Source: a virus
Strand: one strand, 5' to 3'
Virus record (IMG/VR): IMGVR_UViG_3300027911_000061
Location: 1 to 25,905 of that record
DNA: 25,905 bases
The position numbers were made by a program, and so were the translations under genes. Under the pieces are notes generated by a model. The model was not told where the DNA came from and searched no databases. It worked only from the letters and a program-made list of their open reading frames with translations. How positions within the stretch are numbered: the first letter of the stretch is position 1; every line of letters begins with the position of its first letter. This document shows positions 13,388-19,305 of this stretch, piece by piece.

Positions 13388-14479
13388 GTGGCAAAACCAG
13401 TAACAGGATTGAGCGTTTTTGAGAATAACAACAGCAATTCTCTGGTGAACCTTGACGGGAATTTCACCACGATTGCCAATGCTCTCAATGACCCTGCCAG
13501 TTATACCAACTTTGGCACGGATACGGGGACTATAAACAACGTAGCGGTGACTATTGCCAATCTGAACATGATTGGATATGTCAACGGACAGATATTTCAA
13601 ATCCTGATTGCCAACACCAATACTGGCGTTCCAACGCTAAACATTAACGCGCTTGGCACAAAGACTATATTCCATCAGGACGGAACCAGCATGATTGCTG
13701 GTGATTTGGTAGCCAACAACGTTTATACGTTTGTCTACAACTCCACGCTTGCATCTGCTGCCGGTGGATTTAATCAGGTAGGCGCTCCAAGTGCTTCTGT
13801 TGGAAGCGCATCCAACGTGGCGACTAATTCTTCGTCTGCCAATAGCACTTTCTACCCAACGTTTGTAGCAGCTACCAGCGGCAATAACCCGATTACTACC
13901 AATTCGGGATTGACCTACAACCCTAGCACGGGCTTGCTAACGGTTACTTCGGTTTCTGGGACTTCGGGTGGTTTGTCGGGTACAAGTCCTGCTCTTGGGA
14001 CAAATTGGAAAATTGATAGCAACAATCAATTGACCAACAACGGCAATACGATGTATATGGCGGCAATCTATGCTTCCGGTTCTATGGTTGCTGGTGCGCC
14101 TGGAACTCCCATAACCTACAACACAATTATTTCCCAAGTTGGATCAAACTTTAGCCTAAGCGCGGGAGCCATTGTTATTGCTGCTGCGGGGCAATATGAA
14201 GTGTCTGCGTCTTTTGGTGTGGGTGACGCACTGGTAAATCTTGGCGCAGTGTTTTACTTTGGCGGCACGGCAAGCTCCATCATTGGGCCTAATTCCACAA
14301 CCAATGGATCGTATGTATTCCTTGCGGGTGCAAACGGTGCCAATAGCGGATATGTGACTCTTAGCGGGTTTGTCGTTACTACCGCAACCAATCAAAACGT
14401 TACTGTGCTTTCAAGCGTTGCGTTTTCTTCAATGAACGTGCAACAGTACGCGCAATTCAAGATCAGGAGAATTGGGTAA
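13388..14479 (+). CDS. Tail fibre protein 1 with C1q/TNF-like C-terminal domain
   Basis: 363 residues from GTG 13388, with AAGGTGG at 13377-13383. Residues 1-133 (MAKPVTGLSVFENNNSNSL..., DGNFTTIANALNDPASYTNF..., TLNINALGTKTI..., FVYNSTL) form the virion-attachment module shared with the next two fibres. Residues 145-200 hold a linker seen in many phage fibres (STFYPTFVAATSGNNPIT, LTYNPSTGLLTV). Residues 240-363 look like a C1q/TNF-like jelly roll (FSLSAGAIVIAAAGQYEVSA and a terminal QFKIRRIG), a common receptor-binding head. It probably binds the host surface as a trimer. It overlaps fibre 2 by one base. Confidence 0.72.
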   Translation: MAKPVTGLSVFENNNSNSLVNLDGNFTTIANALNDPASYTNFGTDTGTINNVAVTIANLNMIGYVNGQIFQILIANTNTGVPTLNINALGTKTIFHQDGTSMIAGDLVANNVYTFVYNSTLASAAGGFNQVGAPSASVGSASNVATNSSSANSTFYPTFVAATSGNNPITTNSGLTYNPSTGLLTVTSVSGTSGGLSGTSPALGTNWKIDSNNQLTNNGNTMYMAAIYASGSMVAGAPGTPITYNTIISQVGSNFSLSAGAIVIAAAGQYEVSASFGVGDALVNLGAVFYFGGTASSIIGPNSTTNGSYVFLAGANGANSGYVTLSGFVVTTATNQNVTVLSSVAFSSMNVQQYAQFKIRRIG

Positions 14480-15900
14480 TGCCCAAAATCACGGGCCTCA
14501 CTCAGTTTGAGAATAATGTCTCAAACAACCTGCTTTATCTTGACCAAAATTTCACGATTTTGGCCAATGCGCTAAATGCTCCCGAAAATTACACAAATTT
14601 CCTGATTGATTCCGGCCCGCCTAATTTCATTACGGCAACCAACCCGCTATTCACGCTTGCTGCCTACGCTGATGGACAGATATTTGCGGTAAGGGTGACA
14701 AGCTCGATAACTTCCACTTCTCCAACGCTCAACATCAACGGATTGGGCGCTAAAGTTATCTACGATATGTTGGGGCGGTTTGTTAATGTCGGAATGATTA
14801 TTGCGGGTCAGACATACGCATTTATCTACAATTCCACGTTAAATGGCGGTGTAGGCGGGTTTAATCTTTATTCGCCGGATCATTACCCGTTTTACGGTGG
14901 ATCAATTGCCGCTAACGCTGAAACAGCGGAAGTTGTTGTTGCGCCAAGTGCAACTCCATTAATAAATGCCGCGTTAAGCAACGTTTTTTATTTGGCGATG
15001 AACCAAAATGTTACCTCGTCAACCATAACAAATTCGTCAATTGGTCAAACAATCAGTGTTTTTATATCTCAAGATTCTACGGGGTCTAGAACAATAACGT
15101 GGCCTGCAAATTTCAAATGGGCCGGTGGAACGCCTGGTGTTTTGAGTACCATAGCAGGATATACGGATCTTTTAACTGCCACATATAGATCAGACGGGAA
15201 TTGGTACGCTTCGCTGCAAACTGCTTATCAAACTGTTGCAATTAACACATTGTTGTTAATGCATTTTGATGGAACAAACGGATCTACTTCTTTTGTTGAT
15301 GTTTTTGGTGGGTTTACTTCAACAAACATTAATGGAGTCAGCATCAGTACGGCCCAATACGAATTTGGTGGAGCTTCCATATATGTTCCTGCTGCTGGTA
15401 ATTCTTTGGTTGGCACAATTTCAGCAAACGGCGTAAACATTGGGTCTGGAGATTTTACTGTTGAATTTTGGGCTTATCCAATAAGTTTTGGAATTGCAAC
15501 AAACTATCCTTATGTTGTTTCAATTACAGATGGCTCCTCAACAATAGGATTGCAGTATAACAGCGGTGCAGGAACATCTTCTGTTCAAGGGCAAATTTCA
15601 ATTTCGGGCGCTTATACAAACACAACAAATACTGCTCTTACGTTAAACGCATGGAATCCAATAGCATTGGTTAGAAAATCCGGCAATTTTTCTTTTTATC
15701 TAAATGGAAATATTGTTGGATCTTCTGTTTTTGCGCCTGCATCAGTTTTAACTGCATCCCCTGTTTTATTGCAAATTGGTGGATTTAATCCAAGTGGAGC
15801 GGCTTTTACAGGATATGTAGACGAATTAAGAATTAGCAGTATTGCAAGATACACAACAAATTACACCCCAACCGGACCATTTCCAAACAGCCGTGGCTAA
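14479..15900 (+). CDS. Tail fibre protein 2 with fused LamG/concanavalin-like lectin domain
   Basis: 473 residues. Residues 1-132 are the same attachment module as in fibres 1 and 3 (MPKITGLTQFENN, LDQNFTILANALNAPENYTNF, LNINGLGAKVIYD, FIYNSTLNGGVGGFNLY). Residues 140-247 match the second module of fibre 3 (NAALSNVFYLAM, ISQDSTGSRTITWPANFKWAGG). Residues 257-473 are a LamG-like jelly roll: LLLMHFDGTNGSTSFVD, GDFTVEFWAYP, WNPIALVRKSGNFSFYLNG, GYVDELRISSIARYTTNY. This module probably binds host glycans (inference from the lectin fold). Its DNA (15247-15897) is AT-rich, about 30% GC in sampled lines, and looks acquired. The stop overlaps the start of fibre 3 by eight bases. Confidence 0.75.
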   Translation: MPKITGLTQFENNVSNNLLYLDQNFTILANALNAPENYTNFLIDSGPPNFITATNPLFTLAAYADGQIFAVRVTSSITSTSPTLNINGLGAKVIYDMLGRFVNVGMIIAGQTYAFIYNSTLNGGVGGFNLYSPDHYPFYGGSIAANAETAEVVVAPSATPLINAALSNVFYLAMNQNVTSSTITNSSIGQTISVFISQDSTGSRTITWPANFKWAGGTPGVLSTIAGYTDLLTATYRSDGNWYASLQTAYQTVAINTLLLMHFDGTNGSTSFVDVFGGFTSTNINGVSISTAQYEFGGASIYVPAAGNSLVGTISANGVNIGSGDFTVEFWAYPISFGIATNYPYVVSITDGSSTIGLQYNSGAGTSSVQGQISISGAYTNTTNTALTLNAWNPIALVRKSGNFSFYLNGNIVGSSVFAPASVLTASPVLLQIGGFNPSGAAFTGYVDELRISSIARYTTNYTPTGPFPNSRG

Positions 15901-16654
15901 ACCAATTACAGGCTTAACAGTATTTGAAAACAACCTTATCAATAGCATGGTGCTATTGGATAACAATTTTTCAATACTTGCCAATGCCATAAATGACCCT
16001 GCAACGTACACCAACTATGCGTTGGATACGGGATCGGTCAATTCGGTAACGATAACGCTTGCCGGGTACAACCTTGTTGGATATTTGGATGGTCAGGTTT
16101 ATTCGGTAAAACTAGCCAATACCAGCACTGCGGTTGGCGCAACCTTGAACGTCAACGGGTTTGGTGCAAAAAACATCTATGACTCGTTTGGGAATCTTGT
16201 AGCAGCGGGGATGCTGGTTCAGGGCCAGATAGTCAGTTTTATCTATAGTTCGACGCTTAACGGGGGATTGGGTGGATTTAATCTTTATGCTCCCAATGCT
16301 TTTGCTTTGGGTGGTGGCTCTATTGCTGGAAATTCCTACACGCCAACGGTAGCGGTAACGTTTACCGGATCAGTGTTGGTAAATGCTTTGCTATCCAATG
16401 TTTTTGACGTTGCAACGGCTACCAGCAATTTTACTTTTACCATTTCCAACCCATCAGGCGGTCAAACAATCAACGTATTTTTTACCCAAGACGCAACGGG
16501 TAATCGGGTTGTTACTTGGCCTGGGAATATCAAATGGGTTGGTGGATCTGCTCCGGTTCTTAGCACTGGAGCAAACAGCGTTGATTTATTGGTTGCAACG
16601 TATCGAAGCTCAACAAGCCTTTGGTACGGATCTTTGTTAAAGACTTTCTCATGA
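15893..16654 (+). CDS. Tail fibre protein 3, attachment part
   Basis: The start chosen is GTG 15893 (MAKPITGLTVFENN), because the shared family N-terminus begins there; the frame extends upstream to 15842 but that part lies within fibre 2. The product is 253 residues. Residues 1-133 are the attachment module (LLDNNFSILANAINDPATYTNY, LNVNGFGAKNIYD, FIYSSTLNGGLGGFNLY). Residues 136-253 are the second beta module shared with fibre 2 (NALLSNVFDVAT, FFTQDATGNRVVTWPGNIKWVGG). It lacks a C-terminal receptor domain; the LamG-like domain that follows this module in fibre 2 is here a separate gene starting in an ATGA overlap. The two products may form one fibre. Confidence 0.7.
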   Translation: MAKPITGLTVFENNLINSMVLLDNNFSILANAINDPATYTNYALDTGSVNSVTITLAGYNLVGYLDGQVYSVKLANTSTAVGATLNVNGFGAKNIYDSFGNLVAAGMLVQGQIVSFIYSSTLNGGLGGFNLYAPNAFALGGGSIAGNSYTPTVAVTFTGSVLVNALLSNVFDVATATSNFTFTISNPSGGQTINVFFTQDATGNRVVTWPGNIKWVGGSAPVLSTGANSVDLLVATYRSSTSLWYGSLLKTFS

Positions 16655-17389: not shown

Positions 17390-17938
17390 ATGACCGTAGC
17401 CATAATCAAATGGATTCTCCAATTCATTGTAATGATTGGGGTGAATACTTTTACTCCGTTAATAATGGTGGTGGCGGTATGGTTTCAGGACCGGGTTACG
17501 GGGCGTATGCCTTTGCTATTGCGGTTTTTGGAAACCTATGACGATTTAGGCCCGGATCAAGGGATGTATGAACCTAAAGTCAAAATAATCTATAACAGGT
17601 TTGGGTGGCGGGCAAAGCAATGGTATTGGTTGGGGATCAGAAACCAGTGCTACACGCTGTTTTTCTGGATGGCTCCTGTAATCGACTATTACGGAGTTGC
17701 GCGGTACACCCACGTAGGCTCAAGGGGTGATCCTCATTGGAACGCATTTATTGAACAGTTTGGAACTGTTCATTTTGAATTTGGATGGTCTTGGAGATAT
17801 TCGGCCACAAAAGGCGGAAGTTTTGGCTTTGGATGGAAGATATTTTCTGTTGACAGGTTCCTTACGGGGGATAAAACTGGCACGGACAAAGATCGACCAC
17901 TTTTTTATCTACAAGTCAAACCGTACAGTACAATTTAA
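17390..17938 (+). CDS. Phage protein with N-terminal membrane segment, function unknown
   Basis: 182 residues, starting four bases after the lectin gene. Residues 1-32 contain one or two hydrophobic segments (IIKWILQFIVMIGV and LIMVVAVWF). The rest is soluble and rich in Trp, Tyr, Phe and Gly (GWRAKQWYWLGIRNQ, FFWMAPVIDYYGVARYTH, FEFGWSWRYSATKGGSFGFGWK), suggesting a membrane-tethered beta sheet. Such proteins occur just before lysis genes in podoviruses, and I recall a DUF-type family, but I cannot name it with certainty. It may act at the host membrane during lysis or DNA entry (inference). The ribosome binding site is weak. Confidence 0.58.
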   Translation: MTVAIIKWILQFIVMIGVNTFTPLIMVVAVWFQDRVTGRMPLLLRFLETYDDLGPDQGMYEPKVKIIYNRFGWRAKQWYWLGIRNQCYTLFFWMAPVIDYYGVARYTHVGSRGDPHWNAFIEQFGTVHFEFGWSWRYSATKGGSFGFGWKIFSVDRFLTGDKTGTDKDRPLFYLQVKPYSTI

Positions 17939-17960: not shown

Positions 17961-18227
17961 GTGGAACAAGACCGTAGAAATACCTGGAATGGACAAGAGC
18001 GAAGGGGTTGCTATTTCGAGCCAGAAAGCGCAGCCCAAGCTATCGCAACCTACCTTGACGCTTATCAGGTCCAACGGGACAAACGGCGTGAATCGGAGCG
18101 ATTTGAGCAGTTTGGCAGAGCCATCGCATCACGGGTTTTATGGCTCATTGGGGCGGTTTGCTTATACGCTCTTGGGCATAAACACGAAAGCATAATTGGC
18201 TTTCTGGAATGGGCTTTTAAGGGGTAG
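17961..18227 (+). CDS. Small single-span membrane protein, holin candidate
   Basis: 88 residues from GTG 17961 with AGGGG at 17949-17953. The N-terminal half is charged and polar (MEQDRRNTWNGQERR; QRDKRRESERFEQFGR), and residues about 55-72 (ASRVLWLIGAVCLYALG) form one transmembrane helix. Size, one membrane span and position directly before a possible lysin suggest a holin or lysis regulator. A competing frame starting at 17959 encodes a 78-residue low-complexity product and was rejected. The proof would be functional. It ends two bases before the DUF5675 gene, whose ribosome binding site lies inside its last codons. Confidence 0.55.
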   Translation: MEQDRRNTWNGQERRGCYFEPESAAQAIATYLDAYQVQRDKRRESERFEQFGRAIASRVLWLIGAVCLYALGHKHESIIGFLEWAFKG

Positions 18228-18229
18228 TC

Positions 18230-18643
18230 ATGGATTTGACGATTACTAGGTTTAAGGTGGGCGATACGGGCTGTTTTGGGACCATGACGGAACCGGACGG
18301 AACCCAAGTCTGCGTAACCGCAGAACACGCTTATTTGCAGGATTCCGGGGATGTATGGCTCCCCAAAGTTCCTGCCGGAACGTATCTGTGCAGCAGGGGG
18401 CATTTCCAGCTTAGCCACGGTCCTGTTTTTGAGACTTTTGAAGTCAAAGACGTACCTGGCCATTGGGGAATACTTATCCACAAAGGAAACCTGCCGGAAG
18501 TCGATTCTGAGGGCTGTTTCCTGCTTGGAGACTCGTTGGGGAGTTTAAATGGGCAAGAAGATGTAGCCAATTCTGCTGACGCTTTCCAGCGGTTTATGGC
18601 GCTTCAGGAGGGGGTAAACGAGTTTTGGGTAACGATTAAATGA
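18230..18643 (+). CDS. DUF5675 family protein, candidate cell-wall enzyme of the lysis cassette
   Basis: 137 residues; ATG 18230 with AAGGGG five bases ahead. The motif order CVTAEHA, VPAGTYLCSRG, FETFEVKDVPGHWGILIHKGN and DSEGCFLLG is that of DUF5675. In the ordered pair IHKGN (His84) and DSEGC (Cys96), the His then Ser-x-Gly-Cys layout recalls the HG...S-x-G-C signature of L,D-transpeptidase-type enzymes, though the spacing is short (12 residues) and homology is unproven. No lysozyme, amidase or peptidase is visible in the lysis cassette, and this gene lies between two small membrane genes and the spanins. It is therefore the best endolysin candidate (inference). There is no signal peptide, so it would need a holin to reach the wall. 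Confidence 0.7.
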   Translation: MDLTITRFKVGDTGCFGTMTEPDGTQVCVTAEHAYLQDSGDVWLPKVPAGTYLCSRGHFQLSHGPVFETFEVKDVPGHWGILIHKGNLPEVDSEGCFLLGDSLGSLNGQEDVANSADAFQRFMALQEGVNEFWVTIK

Positions 18644-18837
18644 AGTTTTTGACTGACTTGTTTACGGAGCGGGACGGGACAAGTTGGTGTATAGGGAGGA
18701 TAATTGGTGCTGCTGGCGCAGGCGTTATGTGTTATCGATTTGCTACTGCTGGTGGCGCTGATTTTGCTAACTTTGCCGGTGGCTTGGCGGCAATTATTGC
18801 GTCTATTGGGTTCAAAAACATCTCAGAAAGGCAGTAA
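18640..18837 (+). CDS. Small two-span membrane protein, holin candidate
   Basis: 65 residues starting in an ATGA overlap with the DUF5675 gene. FTERDGTSWCIGRIIGAAGAG leads into a first membrane segment (about 18-35), and FAGGLAAIIASIGF forms a second (about 44-58). The short charged tail is SERQ. A small protein with two membrane spans between a possible lysin and the spanin is typical for holins or antiholins. It and the 88-residue protein upstream may form a holin/antiholin pair (inference). It ends directly at the ATG of the next gene. Confidence 0.6.
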   Translation: MKFLTDLFTERDGTSWCIGRIIGAAGAGVMCYRFATAGGADFANFAGGLAAIIASIGFKNISERQ

Positions 18838-19305
18838 ATGAACTGGATTTACGAAATTGCTGCCATTATTTTGATGATTTTGGCCGGTGGAACCGTTTGG
18901 GTGGTCGAAGATAGGGAAATTGAGTCCCTAAAAGCCCAAATTTCGCAAATGCAGGCCCAAGATGCCATTAAAACGGCTCAATTTCTTGAAGAATCGGCAA
19001 AAAAACAACAGGAGTTGGAGAATGAACGCAATGCTGTTGTCGCTACCTATTTTGATGAACAGGATAAAAGCAACAAGCTTTTGTCTGATTTGCGTGGCCG
19101 TAACGTCTTGCTCAACTCCGCAATCGACTCCTTCGCCAAACGTAACGATTGCCAACTGCCCAAAATTGTCACTTCCCCCGGAATTGTTAGTGCCGCCCAA
19201 ACCGAAGGGGAGTTACTCAAAGCAAGTATCGGACTTTCAACAGACCTTGCAGGACAAGCTGAGGCCCTAGCAGATCAATTGAGGGCTTTGCAGGCACTAA
19301 AATGA
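18838..19305 (+). CDS. Rz: Inner-membrane spanin (Rz-like)
   Basis: 155 residues. Spanins fuse the inner and outer membranes in the last step of lysis in Gram-negative hosts. Residues 1-23 (MNWIYEIAAIILMILAGGTV) are an N-terminal membrane anchor. Residues 25-95 are charged and helical (EDREIESLKAQISQMQAQD, KKQQELENERNAVVATYFDE), as in Rz coiled coils facing the periplasm, and the C-terminal half (LLKASIGLSTDLAGQAEALADQL) is again helical. The gene contains a second reading frame with the features of Rz1, which strongly supports the call. It follows the 65-residue membrane protein without a gap and its end overlaps the next gene by four bases. Confidence 0.82.
   Translation: MNWIYEIAAIILMILAGGTVWVVEDREIESLKAQISQMQAQDAIKTAQFLEESAKKQQELENERNAVVATYFDEQDKSNKLLSDLRGRNVLLNSAIDSFAKRNDCQLPKIVTSPGIVSAAQTEGELLKASIGLSTDLAGQAEALADQLRALQALK
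19022..19270 (+). CDS. Rz1: Outer-membrane spanin lipoprotein (Rz1-like), nested in Rz in another frame
   Basis: This frame lies wholly within the Rz gene. ATG 19022 follows GGAG at 19011-19014 (7 bases) and gives 82 residues. A later ATG at 19055 gives 71 residues and a more ordinary signal peptide (MNRIKATSFCLICVAVTSC). Either way the hydrophobic core CLICVAVTS ends in the lipobox VTSC, so the mature protein would start at Cys and be lipid-anchored in the outer membrane. The mature part is Pro-rich (STPQSTPSPN; LSLPPELLVPPKPKG), typical of Rz1. Rz and Rz1 together bridge the two membranes. Confidence 0.8.
   Translation: MNAMLLSLPILMNRIKATSFCLICVAVTSCSTPQSTPSPNVTIANCPKLSLPPELLVPPKPKGSYSKQVSDFQQTLQDKLRP

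What the first reader, a model, noticed from the sequence alone, without database searches (positions are those of the whole stretch)
18230..18643. DUF5675 protein as the only visible lysin candidate
The cassette has two small membrane proteins and Rz/Rz1 but no known lysozyme, amidase, peptidase or transglycosylase. The DUF5675 protein sits exactly where an endolysin should be and has His84 and Ser-x-Gly-Cys96 in the order seen in L,D-transpeptidase-type active sites. It may be an undescribed wall-degrading or wall-modifying enzyme.
Basis: partly seen in the sequence, partly recalled or inferred. Interest (0 to 1): 0.7.

Follow-up and report, generated by a model that had tools for sequence, protein, structure and literature searches.

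The report
DUF5675, likely thiol phage endolysin
A phage gene of "unknown function" sits in the slot of the cell-bursting enzyme, shares its active-site layout with enzymes that cut cell-wall peptides, and recurs as the only visible lysin candidate in related phages, so it is probably an endolysin of an untested type.

Summary
Window 18230-18643 encodes a 137-aa DUF5675 protein (PF18925, E=3e-19) between a small membrane protein and an Rz/Rz1 spanin pair, with no other lysin found. The window is a fragment, but a 39-kb relative and a complete cultured vibriophage of the same SU10-like kind also carry DUF5675 and no other Pfam lysin. H84, G86, N87, G95 and C96 are invariant in about 150 diverse homologues, beyond the positions used to fetch them. 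Homologues adjoin small membrane genes (41/65 against 49/303 background) and spanins. In a jumbo-phage protein DUF5675 is fused behind a lytic-transglycosylase domain. Sequence profiles do link it to the Tlde1 branch of the LD-transpeptidase superfamily (hhalign 86-91%, P about 1e-6, catalytic His and Cys in register; that bridge profile hits solved Tlde1a at 2e-5) and weakly to YkuD. Best reading: a holin-released cysteine L,D-peptidase acting as endolysin. It is not wholly undescribed: crAss-phage homologues are already deposited as "L,D-carboxypeptidase/transpeptidase". No biochemistry was found in the papers searched.

The parts
17961..18227 (+). 88-aa protein (GTG start), one predicted transmembrane segment (residues 54-72); candidate holin or antiholin
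   Evidence: hydropathy 1.79; no Pfam family, only a weak PHROG match of unknown function; stop 2 nt before DUF5675
18230..18643 (+). DUF5675 protein, 137 aa, proposed cysteine L,D-peptidase endolysin; no signal peptide or TM segment
   Evidence: PF18925 E=3.3e-19; AlphaFold pLDDT 96; conservation
18368..18385 (+). VPAGTY motif (residues 47-52; family consensus IPxGTY)
   Evidence: P48, G50, Y52 at 95-98%; aligns with IPEG-Y of the Tlde1-like domain
18479..18490 (+). H84-K-G86-N87, proposed catalytic histidine loop
   Evidence: H, G, N invariant in the 153 aligned sequences; H84 65/65 among loci fetched only by the Cys motif
18506..18517 (+). S93-E-G95-C96, proposed catalytic cysteine (nucleophile)
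   Evidence: G95 and C96 invariant; C96 66/66 among loci fetched only by the His motif; S/T three residues before the Cys in 132/153
18640..18837 (+). 65-aa moderately hydrophobic small protein, second holin/antiholin candidate; overlaps DUF5675 by 4 nt
18838..19305 (+). Rz-like i-spanin, 155 aa, N-terminal TM
   Evidence: phrog_2466 E=1.9e-8, phrog_739 E=1.1e-5; hydropathy
19055..19270 (+). Rz1-like o-spanin nested out of frame in Rz (open from 18962; likely start at the Met near 19055), lipobox-like VTSC, proline-rich
   Evidence: sequence; no family match

Best explanation
The DUF5675 protein is this phage's endolysin, or at least its main peptidoglycan-cutting enzyme. It is made in the cytoplasm without a signal, released when the holin permeabilises the membrane, and acts with the Rz/Rz1 spanins. 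Chemically it is a cysteine peptidase of the LD-transpeptidase superfamily (Tlde1-like branch). C96, activated by H84 and supported by S/T93, attacks the bond between the L-centre of meso-DAP3 and D-Ala4 of a peptide stem. In a 4-3 cross-linked stem, water hydrolysis there would cut the cross-link (L,D-endopeptidase). Shown here: gene identity, cassette position, invariant His/Cys motif, remote homology to Tlde1, fusion to a transglycosylase domain, lack of other recognised lysins in relatives. Inferred: peptidoglycan as substrate, the L,D bond, hydrolysis rather than transpeptidation, sufficiency for lysis, and which small protein is the holin.
For: (1) Cassette position, co-oriented with Rz/Rz1. 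(2) The relative's 39-kb contig G001 has DUF5675 at 64% identity, overlapping a preceding 115-aa gene with a hydrophobic segment and coiled coil, and no Pfam lysin in its 11-family list. Complete Vibrio phage VA-RY-3 (SU10-like portal and capsid) has DUF5675 and no lysin in its 23-family list. KarBoss: none in 25 of 27 families shown. PF00959 absent from all 12 records searched, SLT from 11 of 12. (3) An adjacent small TM gene in 41/65 non-redundant loci against 49/303 background genes, p=1e-13; neighbours match Rz-like spanin families and a holin, with no endolysin among the 25 of 145 families shown. In Salinibacter phage M8CC-19 a 3-TM holin lies a few genes downstream. (4) Fusion: a 1627-aa protein of a 269-kb phage contig carries SLT (1062-1151) and DUF5675 (1336-1458); a 941-aa protein ends in DUF5675. 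(5) H84, G86, N87, G95, C96 invariant, with a non-circular check. (6) hhalign of DUF5675 against a Tlde1-like domain: probability 86-91%, P 1e-6 to 5e-6, IPxG-Y, His and Cys in register, 0/150 column shuffles as high. That domain's profile hits Tlde1a 7uma at 2.2e-5. Tlde1a is an LD-carboxypeptidase/transpeptidase using H121, S128, C131 (PMC9638812). Against E. coli-type YkuD: P=0.001, His/Cys in register, 0/150 shuffles; NlpC/P60 control P=0.37. (7) LD-endopeptidase activity is known in some YkuD enzymes (PMC12729407).
Against: Foldseek against the PDB found nothing significant for two confident models (pLDDT 96 and 94), so an LD-transpeptidase fold is not shown structurally. No direct Pfam hit to YkuD or Tlde1_dom, and the Tlde1 link passes through an intermediate set of two sequences. 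LD-carboxypeptidase activity alone would trim stems, not lyse cells. In some large phages (424E50-1, vB_CoeS_P1, Slicko01) the gene lies among metabolism or replication genes, not in a lysis cassette, and Slicko01 also has an SLT domain. The window is a fragment.
Confidence: 0.66

Rival explanations
1. It modifies the wall without lysing it: an LD-carboxypeptidase or D-amino-acid exchange enzyme (like Tlde1a) that weakens or seals the wall, prevents superinfection or aids entry, while an unrecognised protein or a host autolysin does the lysis.
For: The closest characterised relative, Tlde1a, trims tetrapeptides and exchanges D-amino acids (PMC9638812). Some large phages carry the gene outside lysis cassettes. 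crAss annotators chose 'L,D-carboxypeptidase/transpeptidase'.
Against: No other lysin in the Pfam scans of the G001 relative or of complete VA-RY-3. Recurrent pairing with small TM genes and spanins.
Confidence: 0.2
2. The active-site resemblance is convergent: DUF5675 is a distinct, new fold with a Cys/His centre, perhaps a peptidase or amidase cutting another peptidoglycan bond.
For: No PDB fold match for two confident models. YkuD similarity is weak (probability 9-20%).
Against: The Tlde1-like profile match spans IPxG-Y through GC in register at P about 1e-6 and is far above shuffles.
Confidence: 0.25
3. A canonical endolysin lies in the missing part of this genome and DUF5675 has an unrelated role.
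For: The window is a linear fragment.
Against: The relative contig and the complete SU10-like vibriophage lack one at Pfam sensitivity; cassette location; fusion with SLT.
Confidence: 0.12

Closest known systems
DUF5675 (PF18925 / phrog_1501)
   Same: Direct member: sequence, length and invariant motif
   Different: Nothing notable; the family has no assigned function
crAss-phage proteins deposited as L,D-carboxypeptidase/transpeptidase (cr112_1, cr116_1, cr1_1)
   Same: Homologous over the active-site half (38-48% identity over short stretches); in cr112_1 beside genes annotated lysis regulator/holin
   Different: Annotation only; no experiment found; presumed Bacteroidota hosts
Tlde1 family (PF10908; Tlde1a, PDB 7UMA)
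   Same: IPxGxY, GF-IH, S-x-GC order, short H-to-C spacing, S/T three before the Cys
   Different: T6SS-delivered toxin with a capping subdomain and disulfides; no Pfam-level match to DUF5675
YkuD L,D-transpeptidases (PF03734; E. coli LdtA-E, B. subtilis YkuD)
   Same: His before S/T-x-G-C; weak profile match in register
   Different: Longer H-to-C spacing, exported host enzymes, no Pfam or fold match
Canonical Gram-negative phage endolysins (lambda R, T4 E, GH24/GH19/M15 types)
   Same: Genomic slot, size, no signal peptide, Rz/Rz1 neighbours
   Different: Unrelated catalytic families; cut glycan or other peptide bonds

Membership tests
DUF5675 (PF18925) | Score above the curated Pfam cut-off over most of the model | tested here: met
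   69.3 bits against 26.7, model 1-111 of 114
DUF5675 (PF18925) | IPxGTY, IHxGN, (S/T)xGC signature | tested here: met
   VPAGTY 47-52, IHKGN 83-87, SEGC 93-96
YkuD L,D-transpeptidase (PF03734) | Pfam PF03734 match | tested here: not met
   Only DUF5675 reported at E up to 0.1
YkuD L,D-transpeptidase (PF03734) | YkuD beta-sandwich fold | tested here: inconclusive
   Foldseek PDB: no match at E<=0.001, best 0.32 and 0.39; hhalign P 0.001-0.004 with the active site in register
Tlde1 domain (PF10908) | Direct Pfam match | tested here: not met
Tlde1 domain (PF10908) | Profile homology with catalytic H/S/C in register | tested here: met
   hhalign 86-91%, P about 1e-6, to a Tlde1-like domain that itself hits 7uma at 2.2e-5
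Phage endolysin | Gene in lysis cassette with holin/spanins | tested here: met
   Rz/Rz1 adjacent; small TM gene neighbours recurrent; holin identity itself unproven
Phage endolysin | Only peptidoglycan hydrolase of the phage | tested here: inconclusive
   None seen in window, G001 or VA-RY-3; window is a fragment
Phage endolysin | Degrades peptidoglycan and is needed for lysis | not testable with these tools
   Needs biochemistry and genetics

The most novel reading that the evidence does not exclude
DUF5675 is a widespread, experimentally unrecognised class of endolysin and virion lysin: a single-domain cysteine L,D-endopeptidase of the Tlde1/LD-transpeptidase superfamily, serving as sole lysin in SU10-like podoviruses and SIO-2-like vibriophages and found in crassviruses, microviruses and fused into jumbo-phage virion proteins.
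Probability: 0.5. Interest if true: 0.7.

Novelty: new variant of a known kind. Interest (0 to 1): 0.52.

Why it matters
Peptidoglycan cleavage at the L,D bond by a YkuD/Tlde1-type cysteine enzyme would be an unusual chemistry for a phage endolysin. It would give a testable function to a large Pfam family of unknown function and explain how many complete phages without an annotated lysin (for example SIO-2-like vibriophages) burst their hosts.

Tried and rejected
Phage_lysozyme (PF00959) and SLT searches of 12 records found only one SLT, in Slicko01. Single-sequence and profile searches of the PDB with DUF5675 gave no usable hit. Foldseek PDB on two models was negative; Foldseek BFVD returned DUF5675 kin. 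The NlpC/P60 profile as control was unrelated. A sortase control could not be built because no members were found. A loose first count of nearby TM genes was uninformative because spurious ORFs inflate it; it was replaced by adjacent-gene counts with a background. Literature: only two papers mention DUF5675, both as table or list entries. Pattern-fetched loci could make motif conservation circular; checked by counting the residue not used in fetching.

Full report
What is there. The ORF at 18230-18643 is exactly as described: 137 aa, DUF5675 (PF18925 E=3.3e-19; phrog_1501, unknown function), with H84 and S93-E-G-C96. It lies 2 nt behind an 88-aa ORF with one transmembrane segment and overlaps by ATGA a 65-aa moderately hydrophobic ORF; an Rz-like spanin follows (phrog_2466, E=1.9e-8) with an out-of-frame Rz1 bearing a lipobox-like VTSC and a proline-rich tail. 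The DUF5675 protein has no hydrophobic N-terminus, as expected of a holin-dependent endolysin. PHROGs scans of the other ORFs up to 24.04 kb show portal, capsid, tail-fibre-type and unknown proteins but no lysin. The window is a 25.9-kb linear IMG/VR fragment.

Is another lysin hidden elsewhere? Two viral contigs carry a 64% identical copy. In the 39-kb one, DUF5675 overlaps a preceding 115-aa gene with a hydrophobic segment and a coiled coil, and Pfam finds 11 families over its ORFs, none a lysin. Vibrio phage vB_ValP_VA-RY-3, a complete cultured phage with SU10-type portal, capsid and adaptor, has DUF5675 (E=3e-31) and no lysin among its 23 Pfam families. The 39-kb relative also carries SU10 portal and adaptor matches, so this is the same broad kind of phage. 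KarBoss, one of the SIO-2-like vibriophages, shows none in 25 of 27 families. A joint scan of a Salinibacter and an Alteromonas phage shows none in 25 of 44 families, so that one is incomplete. PF00959 is absent from all 12 records and SLT from 11 of 12.

Context across the family. Among 65 non-redundant loci, 41 have an adjacent co-oriented small transmembrane gene, against 49 of 303 other genes in the same loci (p=1e-13). Neighbour proteins match several Rz-like spanin families, lipoproteins and a holin; no endolysin appears among the 25 of 145 families shown. In the Salinibacter phage a 3-TM holin (PF11351, E=3e-19) lies a few genes downstream. Two fusions are telling: a 1627-aa protein of a 269-kb phage contig contains a lytic transglycosylase SLT domain (E=7e-6) and, downstream, DUF5675 (E=3e-26); a 941-aa protein ends in DUF5675. 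Large proteins carrying several wall-active domains are typical of virion-associated wall hydrolases (inference). Counter-examples exist: in three large phages the gene is embedded among metabolism or replication genes.

Active site. In 153 aligned members H84, G86, N87, G95 and C96 never vary; E32, P48, G50, Y52 and S115 are at 95-99%. Most loci were fetched with motif patterns, so independence was checked: C96 is present in 66/66 loci fetched only by the His motif, and the His loop in 65/65 fetched only by the Cys motif; the 13 phage-collection members found by tblastn and aligned all have both. The residue three before the Cys is S or T in 132/153, and the His-to-Cys distance is 11 or 12 in most.

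What superfamily? AlphaFold models of the window protein (pLDDT 96.3) and of a bacterial homologue (93.8) are confident, mostly beta with one long C-terminal helix, but Foldseek finds no significant PDB match for either; the BFVD matches are DUF5675 kin, including one deposited as L,D-carboxypeptidase/transpeptidase. Sequence profiles say more. Against an alignment of E. coli LdtA/B/C/E and other YkuD domains, hhalign gives P=0.001-0.004 with catalytic His and Cys in register and beats 150 of 150 column shuffles; an NlpC/P60 control gives P=0.37. Against a two-member Tlde1-like C-terminal domain of bacterial Rhs-like proteins, probability is 86-91% and P about 1e-6, aligned from IPxG-Y through H to GC. 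That domain's profile hits solved Tlde1a (7UMA) as top match at 2.2e-5. Tlde1a has an altered LD-transpeptidase fold and uses H121, S128 and C131 as an LD-carboxypeptidase and exchange transpeptidase (PMC9638812). DUF5675 is therefore most likely a Tlde1-side member of the LD-transpeptidase superfamily, but this rests on a two-step profile link and is not confirmed by fold search.

Mechanism. A cysteine acyl-enzyme at the meso-DAP3/D-Ala4 bond, resolved by water, would trim free tetrapeptides and, in a 4-3 cross-linked stem, cut the cross-link. LD-endopeptidase activity exists in some YkuD enzymes such as LdtCd2/3 (PMC12729407). Released by the holin, this could disrupt the sacculus, after which Rz/Rz1 would act on the outer membrane. 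The substrate, the bond and sufficiency for lysis are inferred.

Novelty. The idea is partly anticipated: crAss-phage homologues beside genes annotated as lysis regulator/holin are already deposited as L,D-carboxypeptidase/transpeptidase, and PhaLP lists YkuD (10 proteins, one PF10908) among phage lytic domains (PMC8310338). No experimental study of DUF5675 was found in the papers searched. I rate it a new variant of a known kind: endolysin by role, a thiol L,D-peptidase by chemistry.

Noticed in passing
L136:14-4897 and L185:1424-4249: DUF5675 fused into a 1627-aa protein of a 269-kb phage contig that also has an SLT transglycosylase domain, and at the C-terminus of a 941-aa protein
   Followed up: partly
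L204:2514-3447, L197:2547-3444, L199:2083-2980: Tandem DUF5675 pairs in bacterial contigs (Prevotellaceae, Bacteroidaceae, Roseburia): the upstream copy has lost the active site (His to Arg, Cys to Asn), the downstream copy is intact; a pseudoenzyme-enzyme pair
   Followed up: no
L009, L012, L013 (microviruses): DUF5675 genes in small ssDNA microvirus genomes; in the Apis-associated one between the major capsid and pilot protein genes
   Followed up: no
window 13388-16654: Three consecutive tail-fibre-like proteins share an N-terminal module (KPxTGLxxFENN...NxxxLDxNFxxLANALN), suggesting duplicated fibre genes with variable C-termini; relatives show the same paralogy
   Followed up: no
window 17390-17938: DUF7338 protein (E=6e-9) with a hydrophobic N-terminus immediately upstream of the cassette; role unknown
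   Followed up: no
L241 / L272: Tlde1-like domains at the C-terminus of Rhs-like bacterial proteins, below the PF10908 cut-off but matching solved Tlde1a; a bridge between DUF5675 and Tlde1
   Followed up: partly
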